Positions 2,550 through 14,399 of a DNA stretch of 64,000 bases are shown here, in pieces. Both the position numbers and the translations under genes were made by a program. Source of the stretch: Hymenobacter sp. BT18. GTDB lineage: Bacteria > Bacteroidota > Bacteroidia > Cytophagales > Hymenobacteraceae. Where the stretch lies: contig NZ_CP050954.1 of assembly GCF_012273015.1 (NCBI RefSeq), positions 1,054,001 through 1,118,000 on the forward strand, written 5' to 3'. The notes under the pieces are model-generated. The model did no database searches. It was given only the letters and a program-made list of their open reading frames with translations, and had not been told where the DNA came from. Numbering within the stretch: the stretch's first letter is position 1; the number at the start of each line of letters is the position of its first letter.

Positions 2550-3257
2550 CTATTTAACGGGTTCCGGTACGGCGGGTTCCGTAGAGTTGCCGGCTACCTC
2601 GCTTAAATAGTGGCGGACCACCAAGGCAATGGAAGCATAAGTATCGGGCAGCACGGCCAGCGCCTCCTGGGGCGACATCCACCGCACCTCTTCGATGTAC
2701 TCCTCGGCCTGGGGCTTCATCAGCGAGTCGTCGAGGCACTGCATGATGTACCAGTTGGTTTTCTTGAGGATCTTGTTGCCGTTGTAGGCGTAGGAGTGCC
2801 AGGTGCTGGGCAGCTCTTCGCCTAGCGCGAGCTGCACGTTGGTTTCCTCCTCTACTTCGCGCAAAGCGCCCTGCATGGGGTCCTCGTCCTTCTTGAGCTT
2901 GCCTTTGGGCAAGTCCCACTTACCCAGGCGGTAAATCATCAAAATCAGCCCATCCTTCACCACAAGTCCTCCGGCGGCTTTGGCAATCCGGAACTGGTCT
3001 TTCAGGTGCAGAATCAGCGACTTTTTCTTGCGGGCCAGCAGGGTCAGCGAGGTCAGCTTTTTGAGCTTCTTCACTTCCATCAGCCGCAGCAAACGGTCAA
3101 TAAACGCCGGGGTGGCGTCGCGCACGAGCACGTCGCCGACCAGGTCCTTGGAGATGAATTCATCCTCGGCGTTCAGAATCAGGTCGTAGCGGTGCTTATA
3201 CACCTTGTCGCTGGTCTTTTTAATGATCAGCGGAATGTCGTTGATGAAAACGTTCAT
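2550..3257 (-). CDS. NUDIX hydrolase with N-terminal extension
   Basis: The 235-residue protein has a Nudix box at residues 119-141 (GKLKKDED ... REVEEETNV); the usual glycine near the end of the box is Asn140. About 90 residues precede the NUDIX fold (MNVFINDIPLIIKK...), an extension I recall in Bacteroidota homologues. It is expected to be a cytosolic pyrophosphohydrolase of unknown substrate. ATG at 3257 is the only good start. The lipoprotein gene follows at 25 nt on the same strand. The divergent neighbour is the phosphodiesterase at 3423. Confidence 0.85.
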   Translation of the reverse strand: MNVFINDIPLIIKKTSDKVYKHRYDLILNAEDEFISKDLVGDVLVRDATPAFIDRLLRLMEVKKLKKLTSLTLLARKKKSLILHLKDQFRIAKAAGGLVVKDGLILMIYRLGKWDLPKGKLKKDEDPMQGALREVEEETNVQLALGEELPSTWHSYAYNGNKILKKTNWYIMQCLDDSLMKPQAEEYIEEVRWMSPQEALAVLPDTYASIALVVRHYLSEVAGNSTEPAVPEPVK

Positions 3258-3386
3258 CGCGGGATGAGAGGAAAGAAGGCAGGAGATTCAGTTTTAGCGC
3301 CGGGGTCCTTTGCAAAGCAGTGCATAAATATCGGCAAACGGAAATACCCAGCAGGCCGGGCAAGATACGAGAAGTACCCGGTAACG

Positions 3387-9447: not shown

Positions 9448-10548
9448 ATGGGTCTCCGCTGCGGTATCGTCGGCTTGCCGAACGTGGGCAAATCCACGCT
9501 GTTCAACGCTCTTTCCAACGCCAAGGCCGAATCGGCCAACTATCCGTTCTGCACCATCGAGCCCAACGTGGGCGTGATTACCGTGCCCGATGAGCGGTTA
9601 CAGATTCTGGAAAAGCTGGTGAACCCCAAGCGCGTGCTGCCCACCATCATCGAGTTTGTGGACATTGCCGGTCTGGTAAAAGGGGCTTCCAAGGGCGAAG
9701 GTCTGGGCAACAAGTTCCTGGCCAACATCCGCGAGGTAGACGCCATTATTCACGTGGTGCGCTGCTTTGAGGACCCTAACATCGTGCACGTGGCCGGCGG
9801 CGTCGACCCAGTGTTCGACAAGGACGTTATCGACACCGAGCTGCAGCTGAAAGACTTGGAAAGCATTGATAAAAAGCTGGTGAAATCGGAGCGCTCCGCT
9901 AAAGCCGGCGACGCCGCGGCCAAAAAGGAAGTAGCCGTGCTCCAGCGCTTCAAGGCGGCCCTGGAAGCCGGGCAGAACGCCCGCGCCGTGCCGGCCGACG
10001 ACACCGAGCTGGAAGCTGTGGCCGACCTGCAGCTGCTCACCATCAAGCCCGTGATTTACGTGGCCAACGTGGACGAGGCCAGCATTGCCACCGACGGCAA
10101 CAAGCACGTAGCGGCCCTGCGGGAGCATGTAAAGGCCGAAAACGCCCAGGTGGTGCTGGTATCGGCGGCCATTGAGGAGCAGATTGCCGACATGGAAGAC
10201 CCCGAGGAAAAGGAAATGTTCCTGGCCGAGTACGGCCTCACGGAGTCGGGCCTGAACAAGCTGATTCGCGCCTCCTACGAGCTGCTGAACTTGATTACCT
10301 ACTTCACGGCCGGCGTGCAGGAAGTGCGCGCCTGGACCATTCACCGCGGCGACAAAGCTCCCGCCGCCGCCGGCGTCATCCACTCCGACTTCGAGAAAGG
10401 CTTTATCCGCGCCGAGGTTATCAAGCTGGCCGATTACCAGGAATATAAAACCGAAGTAAAAATCAAGGAAGCCGGCAAAATGGCCGTGGAAGGCAAAGAC
10501 TACGTGGTGCAGGACGGCGACATTATGCACTTCCGCTTCAACGTCTGA
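9448..10548 (+). CDS. ychF: Ribosome-associated P-loop ATPase YchF (OLA1 family)
   Basis: A 366-residue universally conserved OBG-like protein that binds ribosomes and hydrolyses ATP. The Walker A loop is GLPNVGKST near the N-terminus, the G3 region is [17 protein letters not shown], and the C-terminal TGS domain ends in [17 protein letters not shown], so the gene is full length. The last base of its TGA stop is the first base of the inverted repeat enclosing the GxxExxY gene. It is convergent with the M48 protease at 11.2 kb. Confidence 0.96.
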
Positions 10549-10651
10549 ACCACGGATTCGCGCGGATTTATCGGATTTCGCGGATTTTGTAGACGGCACA
10601 TTGCACCCACTTATAACAAAAAAGACCAGCCTATGGGCTGGTCTTTTTTGT
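10548..10651 (+). repeat. Left arm of the GxxExxY cassette
   Basis: CGGATT occurs at 10553, 10563, 10572 and 10581, i.e. every 9-10 nt, then a unique segment, then the hairpin at 10618-10649. It matches the reverse complement of 11139-11244. Confidence 0.9.
10618..10649. terminator. Terminator hairpin inside the left arm
   Basis: AAAAAAGACCAGCC (10618-10631) pairs perfectly with GGCTGGTCTTTTTT (10636-10649) around TATG, a textbook bidirectional terminator. It would end ychF transcription. Confidence 0.85.
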
Positions 10652-10716
10652 GCGTCGTTTCGGTGGTTTTATTAGATTTAGCTTATATGCAACGCACCTT
10701 GCAACCCGTTTTATAA

Positions 10717-11124
10717 ATGCTTGTTATGTTGTTGGACAACCGTTACAATGAATCGACGCATGCTATTATTGGGTGTTCTATGGCCGTGCATCGTATGCTG
10801 GGTAGTGGGTTTCAGGAGGCAGTGTACCAGCGAAGCTTAGCAATAGAAATGGAGCAAGCCAAGCTGCTTTTTGCGCGTGAGGTAGAAGTACCTATTTACT
10901 ACAAGGGCATTGACGTAGGCTCGCGCCGGATAGATTTTCTGGTGCAAAACACCGTGCTGGTCGTGTTGAAAGCGCTGCACGAGCTAAACCAGAACCATTT
11001 TGCACAAACTATCAACTACTTGGAAGCCTTTCAACTGGAAGTAGGTCTGCTCATCAATTTTGGAGAGCCAAGCCTACGCTATAAACGATTTCTCAAAAAC
11101 CAGCCCCGCTCACTTTCCTTGTAA
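10717..11124 (+). CDS. GxxExxY protein (PD-(D/E)XK nuclease-like), probably catalytically impaired
   Basis: A 135-residue protein with the naming motif GFQEAVY (Gly31, Glu34, Tyr37) and the PD-(D/E)XK-like core RRIDFLV (Asp73) followed by VLVVLKAL (Lys85). In the family the residue two before the lysine is normally Glu (VELKA); here it is Val83, encoded GTG, one base from GAG. The gene lies wholly inside the inverted-repeat cassette. ATG 10717 is used; ATG 10726 is an alternative. The function of the family is not established; it recurs as scattered singletons in many genomes. Confidence 0.85.
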   Translation: MLVMLLDNRYNESTHAIIGCSMAVHRMLGSGFQEAVYQRSLAIEMEQAKLLFAREVEVPIYYKGIDVGSRRIDFLVQNTVLVVLKALHELNQNHFAQTINYLEAFQLEVGLLINFGEPSLRYKRFLKNQPRSLSL

Positions 11125-11138
11125 TTGTTCCGGCCCCA

Positions 11139-11244
11139 ACAAAAAAGACCAGCCCATAGGCTGGTCTTTTTTGTGTTATAGGTGGGTGCAATGCGCCGTC
11201 TACAGAATCCGCGAAATCCGATAAATCCGCGCGAATCCGTGGTT
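11139..11244 (-). repeat. Right arm of the GxxExxY cassette
   Basis: Reverse complement of the left arm with three substitutions and a 2-nt insertion. Its outer base is the last base of the TAA stop of the minus-strand M48 gene. Confidence 0.9.
11141..11172. terminator. Terminator hairpin inside the right arm
   Basis: AAAAAAGACCAGCC and GGCTGGTCTTTTTT pair around CATA. It lies downstream of both the GxxExxY gene and the M48 gene. Confidence 0.85.
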
Positions 11245-12674
11245 TACTTACCCACCACTTTATACAGCTGTCCGGCAGTGAGCTTGGTAGAGGTCTGCAT
11301 CCCGTTGAGGATGGCCAGTTCCTCATAACGCTTCGAGGGAATACCGTTGGCGGCCAAGGCCGAGGCCAGCGTTTGACCGGCTTTGGCGGTGCGCAGGCGG
11401 ATGCGCTCCGGGGCTTTGTTGATTTTAGCTGCGTCGGTGAGGCGCTTGAAGCCCTGAGCCACTCGCTGAAACGTGGGGCCGTAAGTGCCCAGCGTCTGCG
11501 GGCCGCACATACCGATGAGAGCATACAGGGTTTTGCCGTCCTGAATGATGTAGCTCAGCGTGGCGGCTGTTACGCCCTGCTCCCCCACCTGGTTGCCCTG
11601 GATGGCCAGGGCCTGGAAGCCGTTGAGCGTGGTGCGCGAAGCCTTTGGCGACTGTAGGTTCAACTGCTTGGCCAGTGACTGGGCCGCTTCTTCCAGGGAG
11701 TTGCCGGGGGCCGCCGTCAGAATCTGTACAGCCTTACCGCTGGGCTCGGCCATCTGAAACTGCTGGGGTGAGTTCTGAGACTTCCAGCCGGTAGGCACTG
11801 GAAATTGAATCTTCAGATCGGGGTGATAGAAGTAGCCGCTTTGCACATAGCCCTGGCGCGGGTCGTCGCCATACACAAGACCGTTGAGGCGCTGCAGGTA
11901 GGAGTTGCGGTTTACGGCCAGGGCCCGGCCGCCAGCATCCTGCTTAGCGTTGGCGGCCAGCTTTTTCACCGTAGTGTAGCGGTTGGCCGAGTTGGGGTGC
12001 GACGAGAGGAAGGTAGGCACGCTAGCCGCCCCACTCGCCTGCTCCGTGCGCTGCAGCGTCTGGAAGAAGTCGGCCATGCGCGAGGCGTCGTACCCAATTT
12101 TGGTAGAGTACTTCACTCCCAGCTGGTCCGATTCACTTTCGTCGTCGCGGCCGTACTTCAGCAAGCCCAGGCCCACTACCTGCGAGGCCGGCTGGGCTAG
12201 CTGGGCTACGCGCTTGGAAAGCAGAGACCCCAGGATCAGGGCCCCATTGGCAATGGTGGAGCGGGTTTGCTGCTTCTGACCGTGGCGGGCCGTGATGTGG
12301 CCAATCTCGTGGCCAAGCACGCCCGAGAACTGGGCTTCGTCATTGAAGTAAGCCAGGATGCCGCGCGTGAAGTACACGTGGCCATCGGGCGTGGCAAAGG
12401 CGTTGATAATGGGCGAGTCAAGCACCGTGAAGCCTTTTACATCGTTGGGGCGGTCGGAAATGCGGCCCATGGCACCGCCTTTCTGATCCATAAACTGCTG
12501 CAGGGCCGAGTTATCGAGCAGACCGAACTGGGCCACTACCTGCGGATCGGGCTGGGCACCTTGCACGGGGGCAACGGCGCTGGCGGGCGTGGTGGGGCCC
12601 ACCAGACTTCCCATCGGCAGCAGCAACCCCAGGAGGGCGGCGGCGCGAACGGGACGGGACAGGGAAATTTTCAT
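11244..12674 (-). CDS. M48 family zinc metalloprotease (copy 1)
   Basis: This 476-residue protein begins with a signal peptide (MKISLSRPVRAAALLGLLLP...) and carries the zinc motif GHEIGHITARH (HEIGH 122-126), as in BepA/YfgC-like exported M48 proteases. The C-terminal half holds a conserved region and a LysM-like segment (AGQTLASALAANGI...LAILNGM...GQLYKVVGK). It probably acts in the periplasm on misfolded envelope proteins (inference from the family). The frame extends upstream to 12767, but ATG 12674 starts the signal peptide. A paralogue lies immediately upstream. Confidence 0.9.
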   Translation of the reverse strand: MKISLSRPVRAAALLGLLLPMGSLVGPTTPASAVAPVQGAQPDPQVVAQFGLLDNSALQQFMDQKGGAMGRISDRPNDVKGFTVLDSPIINAFATPDGHVYFTRGILAYFNDEAQFSGVLGHEIGHITARHGQKQQTRSTIANGALILGSLLSKRVAQLAQPASQVVGLGLLKYGRDDESESDQLGVKYSTKIGYDASRMADFFQTLQRTEQASGAASVPTFLSSHPNSANRYTTVKKLAANAKQDAGGRALAVNRNSYLQRLNGLVYGDDPRQGYVQSGYFYHPDLKIQFPVPTGWKSQNSPQQFQMAEPSGKAVQILTAAPGNSLEEAAQSLAKQLNLQSPKASRTTLNGFQALAIQGNQVGEQGVTAATLSYIIQDGKTLYALIGMCGPQTLGTYGPTFQRVAQGFKRLTDAAKINKAPERIRLRTAKAGQTLASALAANGIPSKRYEELAILNGMQTSTKLTAGQLYKVVGK

Positions 12675-12777
12675 CGGGAGAGAATGAAGTACGGGAAGAC
12701 AAAACCAAGGCCGGGCACGGGCGCTGCACACCCAGGCGCAGGCCATAGTAGGCAGGCATCGTGCCAAACCGGTCAGC

Positions 12778-14244
12778 TTATTTTTCCACTACCTTGATGA
12801 GGGAGCCGGCATCTACCTGGTCGTTCAGCTGCATGCCGTTCAGAATAGCCATTTCGTTGAGGCGCTTTTCGGGCACGTTGTAGCGGCGCAGGGCGGTTTC
12901 GAGGTTGCTGCGCAGGGTAAGCTTTTTGATGCGCACCCGCTCAGGCTGGCGGTTCAGCTTCTCGGAGTCGGTGAGGCGCTGGAAGCCCTGGGCCACGCTG
13001 GTAAACTGCGGCGCAAACCCATCAAAGTCAGTTGGAGCCGAAACGCCAATCAGTGCGAAAATGGTTTTCCCGTCCTGAATCAGGTACGTGAGGGCGCGCA
13101 CGCCCGCCACTTGCTGACCAGTTTGCTGGTCCTGCTGCACCTGGTCGGCCACGAAGGCCAGGGCGGGAAAGTTGTTGATGGTGGTTTTCTTCGAGTCGGT
13201 GGGCTGCAGGCTGAACTGCTTGGCCAGGGCCTGGGCGGCCTCTTCCAGGGAGTTGCCGGGCGCCAGCATCAGCATTTGCAGGGCCTTGCCGCCGGGGTCG
13301 GCCATTTGAAACTGCTGGGGCGTGTTCTGGTGCTTCCAGCCGGCGGGCACCGGAAAGCGGAACTTCAGCTCAGGGTGGTAAAACACGTTGTTTTCCACGA
13401 AGCCCTGCTTGGGGTCCTCGCCGTACACAATGCCGTCAATCATACGCAGGTACTGGTCCCGGTTGATCTTCAGGTTGGTGGGGTTGCCGTTGCTGGCTTT
13501 CCACTGGTCGGCCAGCTGGTGCACGCGGTTATAGCGGTCGGCGGGGTTGGGGTGGGTGGAGAGGAAGTCGGGAATAGGGTCGGCGCCGCTGGCTTCCTGC
13601 TCGCGCTGCAGGGTCTGGAAGAAGTCGGCCATCTGGGCCGCGTCGTACCCGATTTTACTGGAGTACTGCACGCCCAGCTCGTCGGACTGGCTTTCGTCGT
13701 CGCGCCCGAATTTCAGAAACAGCAGCTGCATGCCCTGCATGGCCTGGTCGCCAAACTGCGCCAGCTTGGGCGAGGCAATCATGGCGCCCACCAGCCCTAC
13801 TTGCCCGATGATGGCATTGGTTTGCTGCTTGGCCGAGTGGCGGGCCGTGACGTGGCCGATTTCGTGGCCCAACACGCCCGCAAACTGGGCCTCGTTGTTG
13901 AAGTGGGCCATGATGCCGCGCGTGAAGTATACGTAGCCCCCGGGCACGGCAAAGGCATTGATAACCGGCGAATCGACGATGCGGAAGTTGTAGGCCAGCT
14001 CGGGGCGGTGCGAGATGGCGCCCATCTGCTTGCCCTTTTCATTGATGAAGTTCTGCAACTTCTGGTCGGGGTAGAGGCCAAACTGGGCCGTTACGGCCGG
14101 GTCCGACTGCTGGCCCATGGCCAGCTCCTGCCCTTCCGACACCAGCATGACTTCTTTTTTGCCGGTAACGGGGTTGGTCGCGCAGGAGTTGAACAGTAGC
14201 GCGGCGGCCAGGCTGCCGCTGAGAAAGAGAATACGGGACTTCAT
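12778..14244 (-). CDS. M48 family zinc metalloprotease lipoprotein (copy 2)
   Basis: A 488-residue paralogue of copy 1 with the same order: zinc motif GHEIGHVTARH (HEIGH 127-131), PEL(K)FRFPVPAGWKHQNTPQQFQMADPGGKA region and a LysM-like C-terminus ending GSLIKVVEK. Unlike copy 1 it has a lipobox-like LLFNSC (Cys21), so it may be membrane anchored while copy 1 is soluble. ATG 14244 starts the signal sequence. Tandem copies 103 nt apart point to local duplication. Confidence 0.9.
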   Translation of the reverse strand: MKSRILFLSGSLAAALLFNSCATNPVTGKKEVMLVSEGQELAMGQQSDPAVTAQFGLYPDQKLQNFINEKGKQMGAISHRPELAYNFRIVDSPVINAFAVPGGYVYFTRGIMAHFNNEAQFAGVLGHEIGHVTARHSAKQQTNAIIGQVGLVGAMIASPKLAQFGDQAMQGMQLLFLKFGRDDESQSDELGVQYSSKIGYDAAQMADFFQTLQREQEASGADPIPDFLSTHPNPADRYNRVHQLADQWKASNGNPTNLKINRDQYLRMIDGIVYGEDPKQGFVENNVFYHPELKFRFPVPAGWKHQNTPQQFQMADPGGKALQMLMLAPGNSLEEAAQALAKQFSLQPTDSKKTTINNFPALAFVADQVQQDQQTGQQVAGVRALTYLIQDGKTIFALIGVSAPTDFDGFAPQFTSVAQGFQRLTDSEKLNRQPERVRIKKLTLRSNLETALRRYNVPEKRLNEMAILNGMQLNDQVDAGSLIKVVEK

Positions 14245-14399
14245 AGAACGGAGAGAGTAAAGCGCAGGAAAGCCGATGACCACCCGCGCCAGGTGGGAAG
14301 AGGAAGAGTCCGTAGCCGCTGCAGGCGGCAGGTATTGTTACGGATACTGCCAGCAACGCAGCACCGGCGCGGAGGTTACACCAGCTCAAATGTCGGGGC

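What the first reader, a model, noticed from the sequence alone, without database searches (positions are those of the whole stretch)
10548..11244. GxxExxY gene sealed inside near-identical 105-bp inverted repeats that end inside both neighbouring stop codons
Arms 10548-10651 and 11139-11244 match in reverse complement except three bases and a CA indel. Each contains four CGGATT units at 9-10-nt spacing plus a terminator hairpin. The left end is the last base of the ychF TGA; the right end is the last base of the M48 TAA. The near identity suggests either recent formation or gene conversion. There is no transposase and no target duplication, so the mode of spread would be new. GxxExxY genes are known as scattered singletons, and these arms could be what carries them.
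Basis: partly seen in the sequence, partly recalled or inferred. Interest (0 to 1): 0.85.

Follow-up and report, generated by a model that had tools for sequence, protein, structure and literature searches.

The report
Nuclease gene inside a palindromic repeat
A small nuclease-like gene of unknown function sits in the loop of a long DNA palindrome in this bacterium; related genes in several other groups of bacteria sit in similar but differently spelled palindromes, with gene-free copies scattered in some genomes, so the gene and the repeats look like one selfish or domesticated system.

Summary
The structure is real and not a singleton. The CGGATT arms recur through the genome: 62 overlapping pattern matches in 36 arrays, 0 for the reversed control; 20 of the 36 form gene-free inverted pairs. 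Tips typically abut stop codons: 19 of 34 lie 0-2 nt from one. GxxExxY genes generally lie between inverted arrays of 9-10-nt units whose spelling is private to the locus but shared by both arms: 91 of 136 loci reach the threshold, against 3 of 345 neighbouring genes. One other dialect has gene-free palindromes in its own genome and none in two others. At the window's junction four species carry the gene, as one protein clade; in the window it is flipped relative to the other three, and in all four the two arms match each other better than any orthologous arm. That fits homogenisation and loop inversion, not recent insertion. The window copy has lost the E of its ExK motif; the sister copy has a stop. 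The architecture resembles REP/RAYT with a Cas4-like PD-(D/E)XK fold instead of a tyrosine transposase. That GxxExxY moves the repeats is inferred, not shown.

The parts
9448..10548 (+). ychF; the last base of its TGA is the tip of the left arm
   Evidence: ORF; TIGR00092 over cut-off; orthologous junction in relatives
10548..10651 (+). left arm
10553..10586 (+). left array, four CGGATT units at 9-10 nt
10616..10651 (.). terminator-like hairpin of the left arm
   Evidence: I3
10717..11124 (+). GxxExxY gene (TIGR04256/PF13366), 135 aa; E of the ExK motif replaced by V
11139..11174 (.). terminator-like hairpin of the right arm
   Evidence: I4
11139..11244 (-). right arm
11206..11239 (-). right array, four CGGATT units
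11244..12767 (-). M48 peptidase gene; the last base of its TAA is the right tip
   Evidence: ORF; PF01435 over cut-off

Best explanation
The locus is one member of a widespread family of palindromic elements in which a GxxExxY gene (PD-(D/E)XK nuclease fold) occupies the loop of an inverted repeat made of 9-10-nt-periodic arrays; gene-free copies of the same arms are scattered in some genomes. It works most like the REP/RAYT pair: a nuclease gene bounded by two inverted repeats, plus small extragenic palindromes of the same spelling. SHOWN: the association, the dispersed gene-free copies, their placement at stop codons, presence/absence at orthologous spacers, inversion of the loop between sister species, and locus-private matching of the two arms. 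INFERRED: (1) arms become identical and the loop flips because the polymerase switches template, or strands recombine, between inverted repeats; (2) GxxExxY binds or cuts the array or hairpin and so helps copies arise elsewhere; (3) tips stop at coding ends because copying further in is selected against, or because the tip itself (TCTGAAC...) supplies the stop. The window copy is probably a decaying one.
For: Arms recur in the genome. Tips at stop codons: 29 of 34 arrays have a sense frame of at least 100 codons ending within 60 nt, 14 of 34 at distance 0. GxxExxY flanks with an inverted match scoring at least 32: 29/30 genus loci, 45/76 named loci, 17/30 phylum loci; slid windows 0/117, 2/1236, 1/95; neighbour genes 3/345. 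Best lag 9 or 10 nt in 55 of 74 arms. By eye 17 of 18 loci of the window's subfamily have both arms (window included). Dialect-specific gene-free palindromes: 14 matches of the L093 arm in its genome, 12 of them besides its own two arms, 0 in two others; a 103-bp gene-free palindrome present in 3 of 30 orthologous loci and replaced by a 35-59-bp spacer in 14. Inversion and single clade. Arm matching at the ychF junction, 6 of 6 above the mean of orthologues, 5 of 6 above the maximum. Fold. Precedents: PMC8604942, PMC2817692, PMC3733652 (passages).
Against: No experiment and no observed insertion event. At nine gene-free sites the two arms beat the mean orthologous arm in only 15 of 31 cases and the maximum in 8 of 31; over all 37 cases, the ychF junction included, the Wilcoxon p is 0.088, so homogenisation is not universal. 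Arms occur in 32 of 60 genomes without the subfamily gene, against 48 of 60 with it (p = 0.0034), so the gene is not needed to keep them. G024, with no GxxExxY hit, still has 9 arm matches. The L117 arms have no full dispersed copies, only one 19-nt match. 31 of 76 named, 13 of 30 phylum and 1 of 30 genus loci do not reach score 32. Of six plasmid loci read, four (Persicobacter, Treponema, Fusobacteria, Sphingomonas) stay below it; a second Nitrospirae and a Calditrichota, a Leptospiraceae and a Caldilineaceae locus do too.
Confidence: 0.6

Rival explanations
1. GxxExxY is a homing-type gene that invades the loop of palindromes that already exist; the palindromes spread by some other means.
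For: Orthologous junctions occur both filled and gene-free: ychF-M48 (filled in G000, G035, G062, G085; gene-free pairs in G025, G014) and site 4 (filled in G026; gene-free pair in G000 and G035, one clear arm left in G003). At one junction (left gene read by eye as psd, right genes different) two species carry genes that are not sisters.
Against: One gene-bearing locus tested has arms with no gene-free copy, and arms are spelled differently from locus to locus, so no common target sequence is seen. Gene loss explains the gene-free pairs equally well.
Confidence: 0.2
2. The arms are ordinary non-autonomous transposable elements (MITEs) moved by a transposase elsewhere in the genome; GxxExxY is a passenger.
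For: Inverted repeats at both ends, small size, many copies, presence/absence between species. Arms persist without the gene.
Against: A passenger would not be expected to accompany differently spelled arms in several phyla. The genome was not searched for a transposase gene with these ends.
Confidence: 0.12
3. The arrays are 3'-end regulatory or terminator-linked elements of the host, and the gene lies there by chance or because convergent spacers tolerate inserts.
For: Sense orientation after stop codons and a terminator between the arms. Other repeat families and other possible small genes also occupy these spacers.
Against: 3 of 345 neighbouring genes against 91 of 136 GxxExxY loci. Palindromes also lie between co-directional genes. 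In genome G000 only one of 11 strict-pattern pairs holds a recognisable gene, and that is GxxExxY; the longest open frame wholly inside the other ten is 64 aa.
Confidence: 0.06

Closest known systems
REP sequences and REP-associated tyrosine transposases (RAYT; REPINs)
   Same: Nuclease gene flanked by two inverted repeats; dispersed extragenic palindromes; placement between convergent and co-directional genes; repeat termini that supply a stop codon (PMC2817692, PMC3733652; abstract and passages).
   Different: Protein is PF13366/TIGR04256 with a PD-(D/E)XK fold, not a tyrosine transposase; the repeats are 9-10-nt-periodic arrays of locus-private spelling, longer than the 20-40-bp REPs.
Template switching between inverted repeats (quasipalindrome correction)
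   Same: Predicts both arm homogenisation and spacer inversion (PMC8604942, yeast; abstract and passages). The E. coli work is known to me from a search listing only (PMC7202029).
   Different: There the inverted spacers are a few bases; here a loop of 487 bp with a gene is inverted, so ordinary recombination between the arms is as likely.
MITEs
   Same: Short gene-free elements with inverted repeats at the ends, in many copies.
   Different: No target duplication could be defined, no partner transposase was looked for, arms are made of periodic units, tips lie at stop codons.
Cas4-family nucleases
   Different: 131 aa against 202 aa for 4ic1; similarity is at fold level only. Association with CRISPR genes was not tested.
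TAACTGA intergenic direct repeats of Beggiatoaceae, Cyanobacteria and some Bacteroidetes
   Same: Short-period intergenic repeats of sporadic distribution (PMC4679880; passages).
   Different: Head-to-tail heptamers mostly upstream of start codons, one inverted case in the genome studied; the word nuclease does not occur in the text.

Membership tests
GxxExxY (TIGR04256 / PF13366) | Profile score over the curated cut-off | tested here: met
   133.1 bits vs 35; 126.6 vs 22
GxxExxY (TIGR04256 / PF13366) | GxxExxY motif | tested here: met
   GFQEAVYQ in the window copy; G28, E31, Y34 invariant in alignment A1
PD-(D/E)XK nuclease | D ... (D/E)xK catalytic residues | tested here: not met
   Window copy: D of RRIDF kept, ExK reads VLK; the other 16 rows of A1 have E. 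So the protein family is met, activity of this copy is doubtful
PD-(D/E)XK nuclease | Restriction-endonuclease-like fold | tested here: met
REP/RAYT | Tyrosine (Y1, Transposase_17) nuclease gene | tested here: not met
   Only PF13366 hits
REP/RAYT | Gene flanked by two inverted repeats | tested here: met
REP/RAYT | Dispersed extragenic copies of the same repeat | tested here: met
   not so for L117
REP/RAYT | GTAG or CGTC tag at the palindrome foot | not tested
   A TCTGAAC-like tip was seen in 21 of 81 arms; GTAG/CGTC not searched
MITE | Inverted repeats at both ends without coding capacity | tested here: met
   Gene-free pairs
MITE | Target-site duplication | tested here: inconclusive
   Filled and empty spacers too diverged
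MITE | Cognate transposase in the genome | not tested
   No search for transposases with these ends was made
Invertible DNA element (inverton) | Both orientations of the same locus | tested here: met
   Between species: G000 against G035, G062, G085
Invertible DNA element (inverton) | Switching within one strain, dedicated recombinase | not testable with these tools
   No reads; only the GxxExxY gene was recognised between the arms

The most novel reading that the evidence does not exclude
GxxExxY proteins are the enzymes of an undescribed class of replicating palindromic elements: a Cas4-like nuclease acts on hairpin or cruciform arms of 9-10-nt-periodic repeats, copies them (with or without the gene) to gene ends, and keeps the two arms identical. 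By the labels of the records with clear arms the class would be present in Bacteroidota, Nitrospirota, Calditrichota, Fibrobacterota and Gemmatimonadota and would account for a share of the intergenic repeats of those genomes.
Probability: 0.4. Interest if true: 0.9.

Novelty: new variant of a known kind. Interest (0 to 1): 0.72.

Why it matters
GxxExxY genes score over the family cut-off in 120 of 247 genomes sampled from the window's phylum, and I found no function for them in the searches made here. Linking them to a class of inverted repeats gives a testable role, offers a second, unrelated solution to the REP/RAYT problem (how extragenic palindromes are born and kept), and supplies natural replicates for arm homogenisation and loop inversion in bacteria.

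Tried and rejected
Recent insertion of the window element: rejected in favour of an older occupant, because the four genes at this junction form one clade (89/89) and G000 with G035 are sisters (99/95).

Universal concerted evolution of all arms: rejected; 15 of 31 arm pairs at nine gene-free sites beat the mean orthologous arm and 8 of 31 the maximum; Wilcoxon p = 0.088 over all 37. Sites 1, 9 and 11 were left out of that count because the relatives read had no two arms to compare, and G017 because it has no intact arms; the G031 spacers of sites 4, 5 and 10 were also left out (no arms). G029, which has a gene-free pair at the ychF junction, was not put into the count. A few spacer edges (sites 4, 7, 8) were moved by hand in the script.

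Strict dependence of arms on a resident cognate gene: rejected (32 of 60 genomes without it have arms). The arm counts are lower bounds, since at most 7 first-look candidates per genome were scored.

The first control (mismatched flanks) was contaminated by loci that share a spelling; I replaced it by slid windows and by neighbouring genes. L214 of 80 named loci was dropped for short flanks, and four of 80. In one search two of the five highest control genes (L185, L237; both under 32) start like further GxxExxY genes. The locus sets hold a few near-duplicates, none between sets: L153/L192, L156/L192, L238/L240, L074/L083.

Of the 18 loci of the window's subfamily looked at by eye (window, L034, L085, L096-L101, L108, L114, L115, L117, L122, L125, L130-L132), the six L096-L101 were fetched after one search had shown gene or arm matches; L100 has one arm only. 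Eight plasmid records matched; six were fetched, H6 and H7 were not.

Literature: 'GxxExxY' is in 2 held papers, both in passing (passages); 'PDDEXK_3' 0; 'PF13366' 1, listing only; 'TIGR04256' 0. Searches with repeat terms showed nothing linking the two in the titles and abstract starts listed. Preprints and most subscription journals are not held. The descriptive text of the TIGR04256 model was not available.

Full report
The observation. The 64-kb window lies in a 4.69-Mb single-contig genome. The two arms, their CGGATT units, the terminator hairpins and the ends in the ychF TGA and the M48 TAA are as described; the neighbours are YchF and an M48 peptidase. The gene between them is a clear GxxExxY protein.

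The arms are not unique. Parts of the outer 48-52 nt recur at 26 further sites of the same genome (list of 27, window included). A strict three-unit pattern has 62 overlapping matches, which make up 36 arrays, and its reversed control none. Eleven inverted pairs meet the strict pattern, all with the tips outwards; no pair of the opposite arrangement lies within 1.5 kb. Ten are gene-free spacers of 156-314 bp with a terminator inside, read by eye (for nine of them, together for the pair at 455378), and no open frame of more than 64 aa; the only one with a recognised gene is the window's. Of 34 arrays in the fetched own loci, 29 follow a sense reading frame of at least 100 codons that stops within 60 nt, 14 with the stop codon ending exactly at the tip and 19 within 0-2 nt; for the other five only a possible start on the other strand was found. 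So 'ends inside stop codons' is the habit of the family, not a peculiarity of this locus. REP sequences do something similar: their termini often supply a TAG stop (PMC3733652, passage).

The gene and the arms belong together. The second GxxExxY gene of the genome (2274298-2274663) also lies between inverted arrays, of different spelling. In the genus, 17 of 18 loci of the window's subfamily read by eye have both arms. Other GxxExxY subfamilies have arms spelled CGCAGAG, CGCAGTG, ACACAGAG, TTTGATT and so on. With a 250-nt window on each side, an inverted match scoring at least 32 is found at 29 of 30 genus loci, 45 of 76 named loci and 17 of 30 loci drawn from the phylum; slid windows in the same loci give 0 of 117, 2 of 1236 and 1 of 95, and other genes in those loci 3 of 345. 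Among 74 arms of 30 nt or more the best internal period is 9 or 10 nt in 55. Records with clear arms are labelled Bacteroidota, Nitrospirae, Calditrichia and Fibrimonadaceae and Gemmatirosa; most are MAG labels. Not every locus has them: 31 of 76 named and 13 of 30 phylum loci fall below the threshold. Four of six plasmid loci do as well (Persicobacter, Treponema, Fusobacteria, Sphingomonas), the last one sitting between fabD and fabG, and so do a second Nitrospirae, a Calditrichota, a Leptospiraceae and a Caldilineaceae locus.

Dispersed copies follow the dialect. The arms of a CGCAGTG-type gene (L093) have 14 matches in their own genome G031, 12 besides its own two arms, including four tight gene-free palindromes, and none in G007 or G017. 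One of these is a 103-bp hairpin between co-directional genes. Of 30 orthologous loci read, 3 species hold a palindrome there, each with different arm sequences; 14 have a spacer of 35-59 bp without it, 3 one of 82-95 bp, 2 other repeats, 4 a larger insert, and in 4 the right flank was not found. The arms of another gene (L117) have no full dispersed copies. Across 120 genus genomes the window's arm is found in 48 of 60 with the subfamily gene and 32 of 60 without (Fisher p = 0.0034), so gene and arms are linked but the arms outlive or outspread the gene. G017, with no GxxExxY hit at all, has one arm match in its genome and no intact arms at the sites compared, with degenerate traces at two; G024, also without the gene, has 9 arm matches.

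History at ychF-M48. Four species carry the gene there: G000, G035, G062 and G085. Their proteins form one clade (89/89), with G000 and G035 sisters (99/95). In G035, G062 and G085 the gene points the other way relative to ychF, so the simplest history is one inversion on the window's own lineage. G025 and G014 have gene-free pairs at the same place, and G017 and G022 only a terminator. The two arms within a genome resemble each other more than the orthologous arms of other species: above the mean in 6 of 6, above the maximum in 5 of 6, among them all four that carry the gene. In G085 both arms carry an ACCACGG-like duplication, and in G062 the M48-side arm carries TCTGA, like the end of ychF, after M48's own TAG. 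At nine gene-free sites the effect is mixed, 15 of 31 above the mean, and over all 37 cases it is not significant (p = 0.088), with one striking case: at site 3 in G003 and G035 both arms share an insert and then genome-private changes.

Mechanism. Arm homogenisation and loop inversion are two known outcomes of template switching between inverted repeats (PMC8604942, abstract and passages); recombination between the arms would do the same. It does not account for why GxxExxY genes live in such repeats across phyla. The parallel is REP/RAYT, where the transposase-like gene is always flanked by two inverted REPs and small copies are scattered (PMC2817692, abstract and passages). Here the protein has a PD-(D/E)XK fold; the model of a relative (pLDDT 92) is nearest to 4ic1, SSO0001, and a Cas4b profile hits weakly. 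I therefore propose that GxxExxY acts on array or hairpin DNA and promotes copying, marked as inference. The window copy has V for the E of ExK, which the other 16 aligned relatives keep, and the sister copy in G035 has an in-frame stop: this locus is probably on its way out, while the second copy in the genome keeps ELK.

Verdict. A real and recurrent structure, older than supposed, whose interest lies in the general link between a nuclease family and a class of inverted repeats for which I found no description in the library searched. One caution on method: the comparison of orthologous gene-free sites rests, a query that packed several sequences into one search.

Noticed in passing
G000 gene-free pairs such as 816-1067, 1290407-1290665 (L011, L018); L268, L272 (G031), L265 (G003): Two other repeat families (GTCATCCTGAGC...GAAGGACCTT and GTCATTGCGAGG...CAATCCGTCCT) also occur as inverted pairs in the same convergent spacers.
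   Followed up: no
L034 2735-3330 (genome 2274235-2274830): Second GxxExxY gene of the genome, with longer and more diverged arrays (CGGATG units) and an intact ELK motif.
   Followed up: partly
window 11244-12767 and 12778-14283, minus strand: Two similar M48-like genes in tandem, about 50-54% identical.
   Followed up: no
L254 (G035:C2:108000-108500): A gene-free pair collapsed to a short palindrome (AACCACAGATTGCGCGGATCCGTGGTT) between the two genes, as if the spacer had been deleted between the arms.
   Followed up: no
L246, L256 (G035 sites 1 and 11): Where G000 has arms, G035 has other spacer content of about 600 bp with terminators and possibly small genes (not tested), so these convergent spacers take up varied cargo.
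   Followed up: no
L291 (Sphingomonas parapaucimobilis plasmid, NZ_CP155749.1): A GxxExxY gene lies inside the fatty-acid operon between fabD and fabG, just before fabG, without visible inverted arms.
   Followed up: no
L141 (Nitrospirae MAG), flanks of 3001-3357: Each flank of the gene looks like a complete palindrome in itself (TGTCTTGAAC...GTTCAAGACA), so the units can be doubled.
   Followed up: no
L011 1029-1067 (genome): In this pair the arm variant CTAG appears to supply the stop codon of the right-hand gene from inside the array (read by eye).
   Followed up: no
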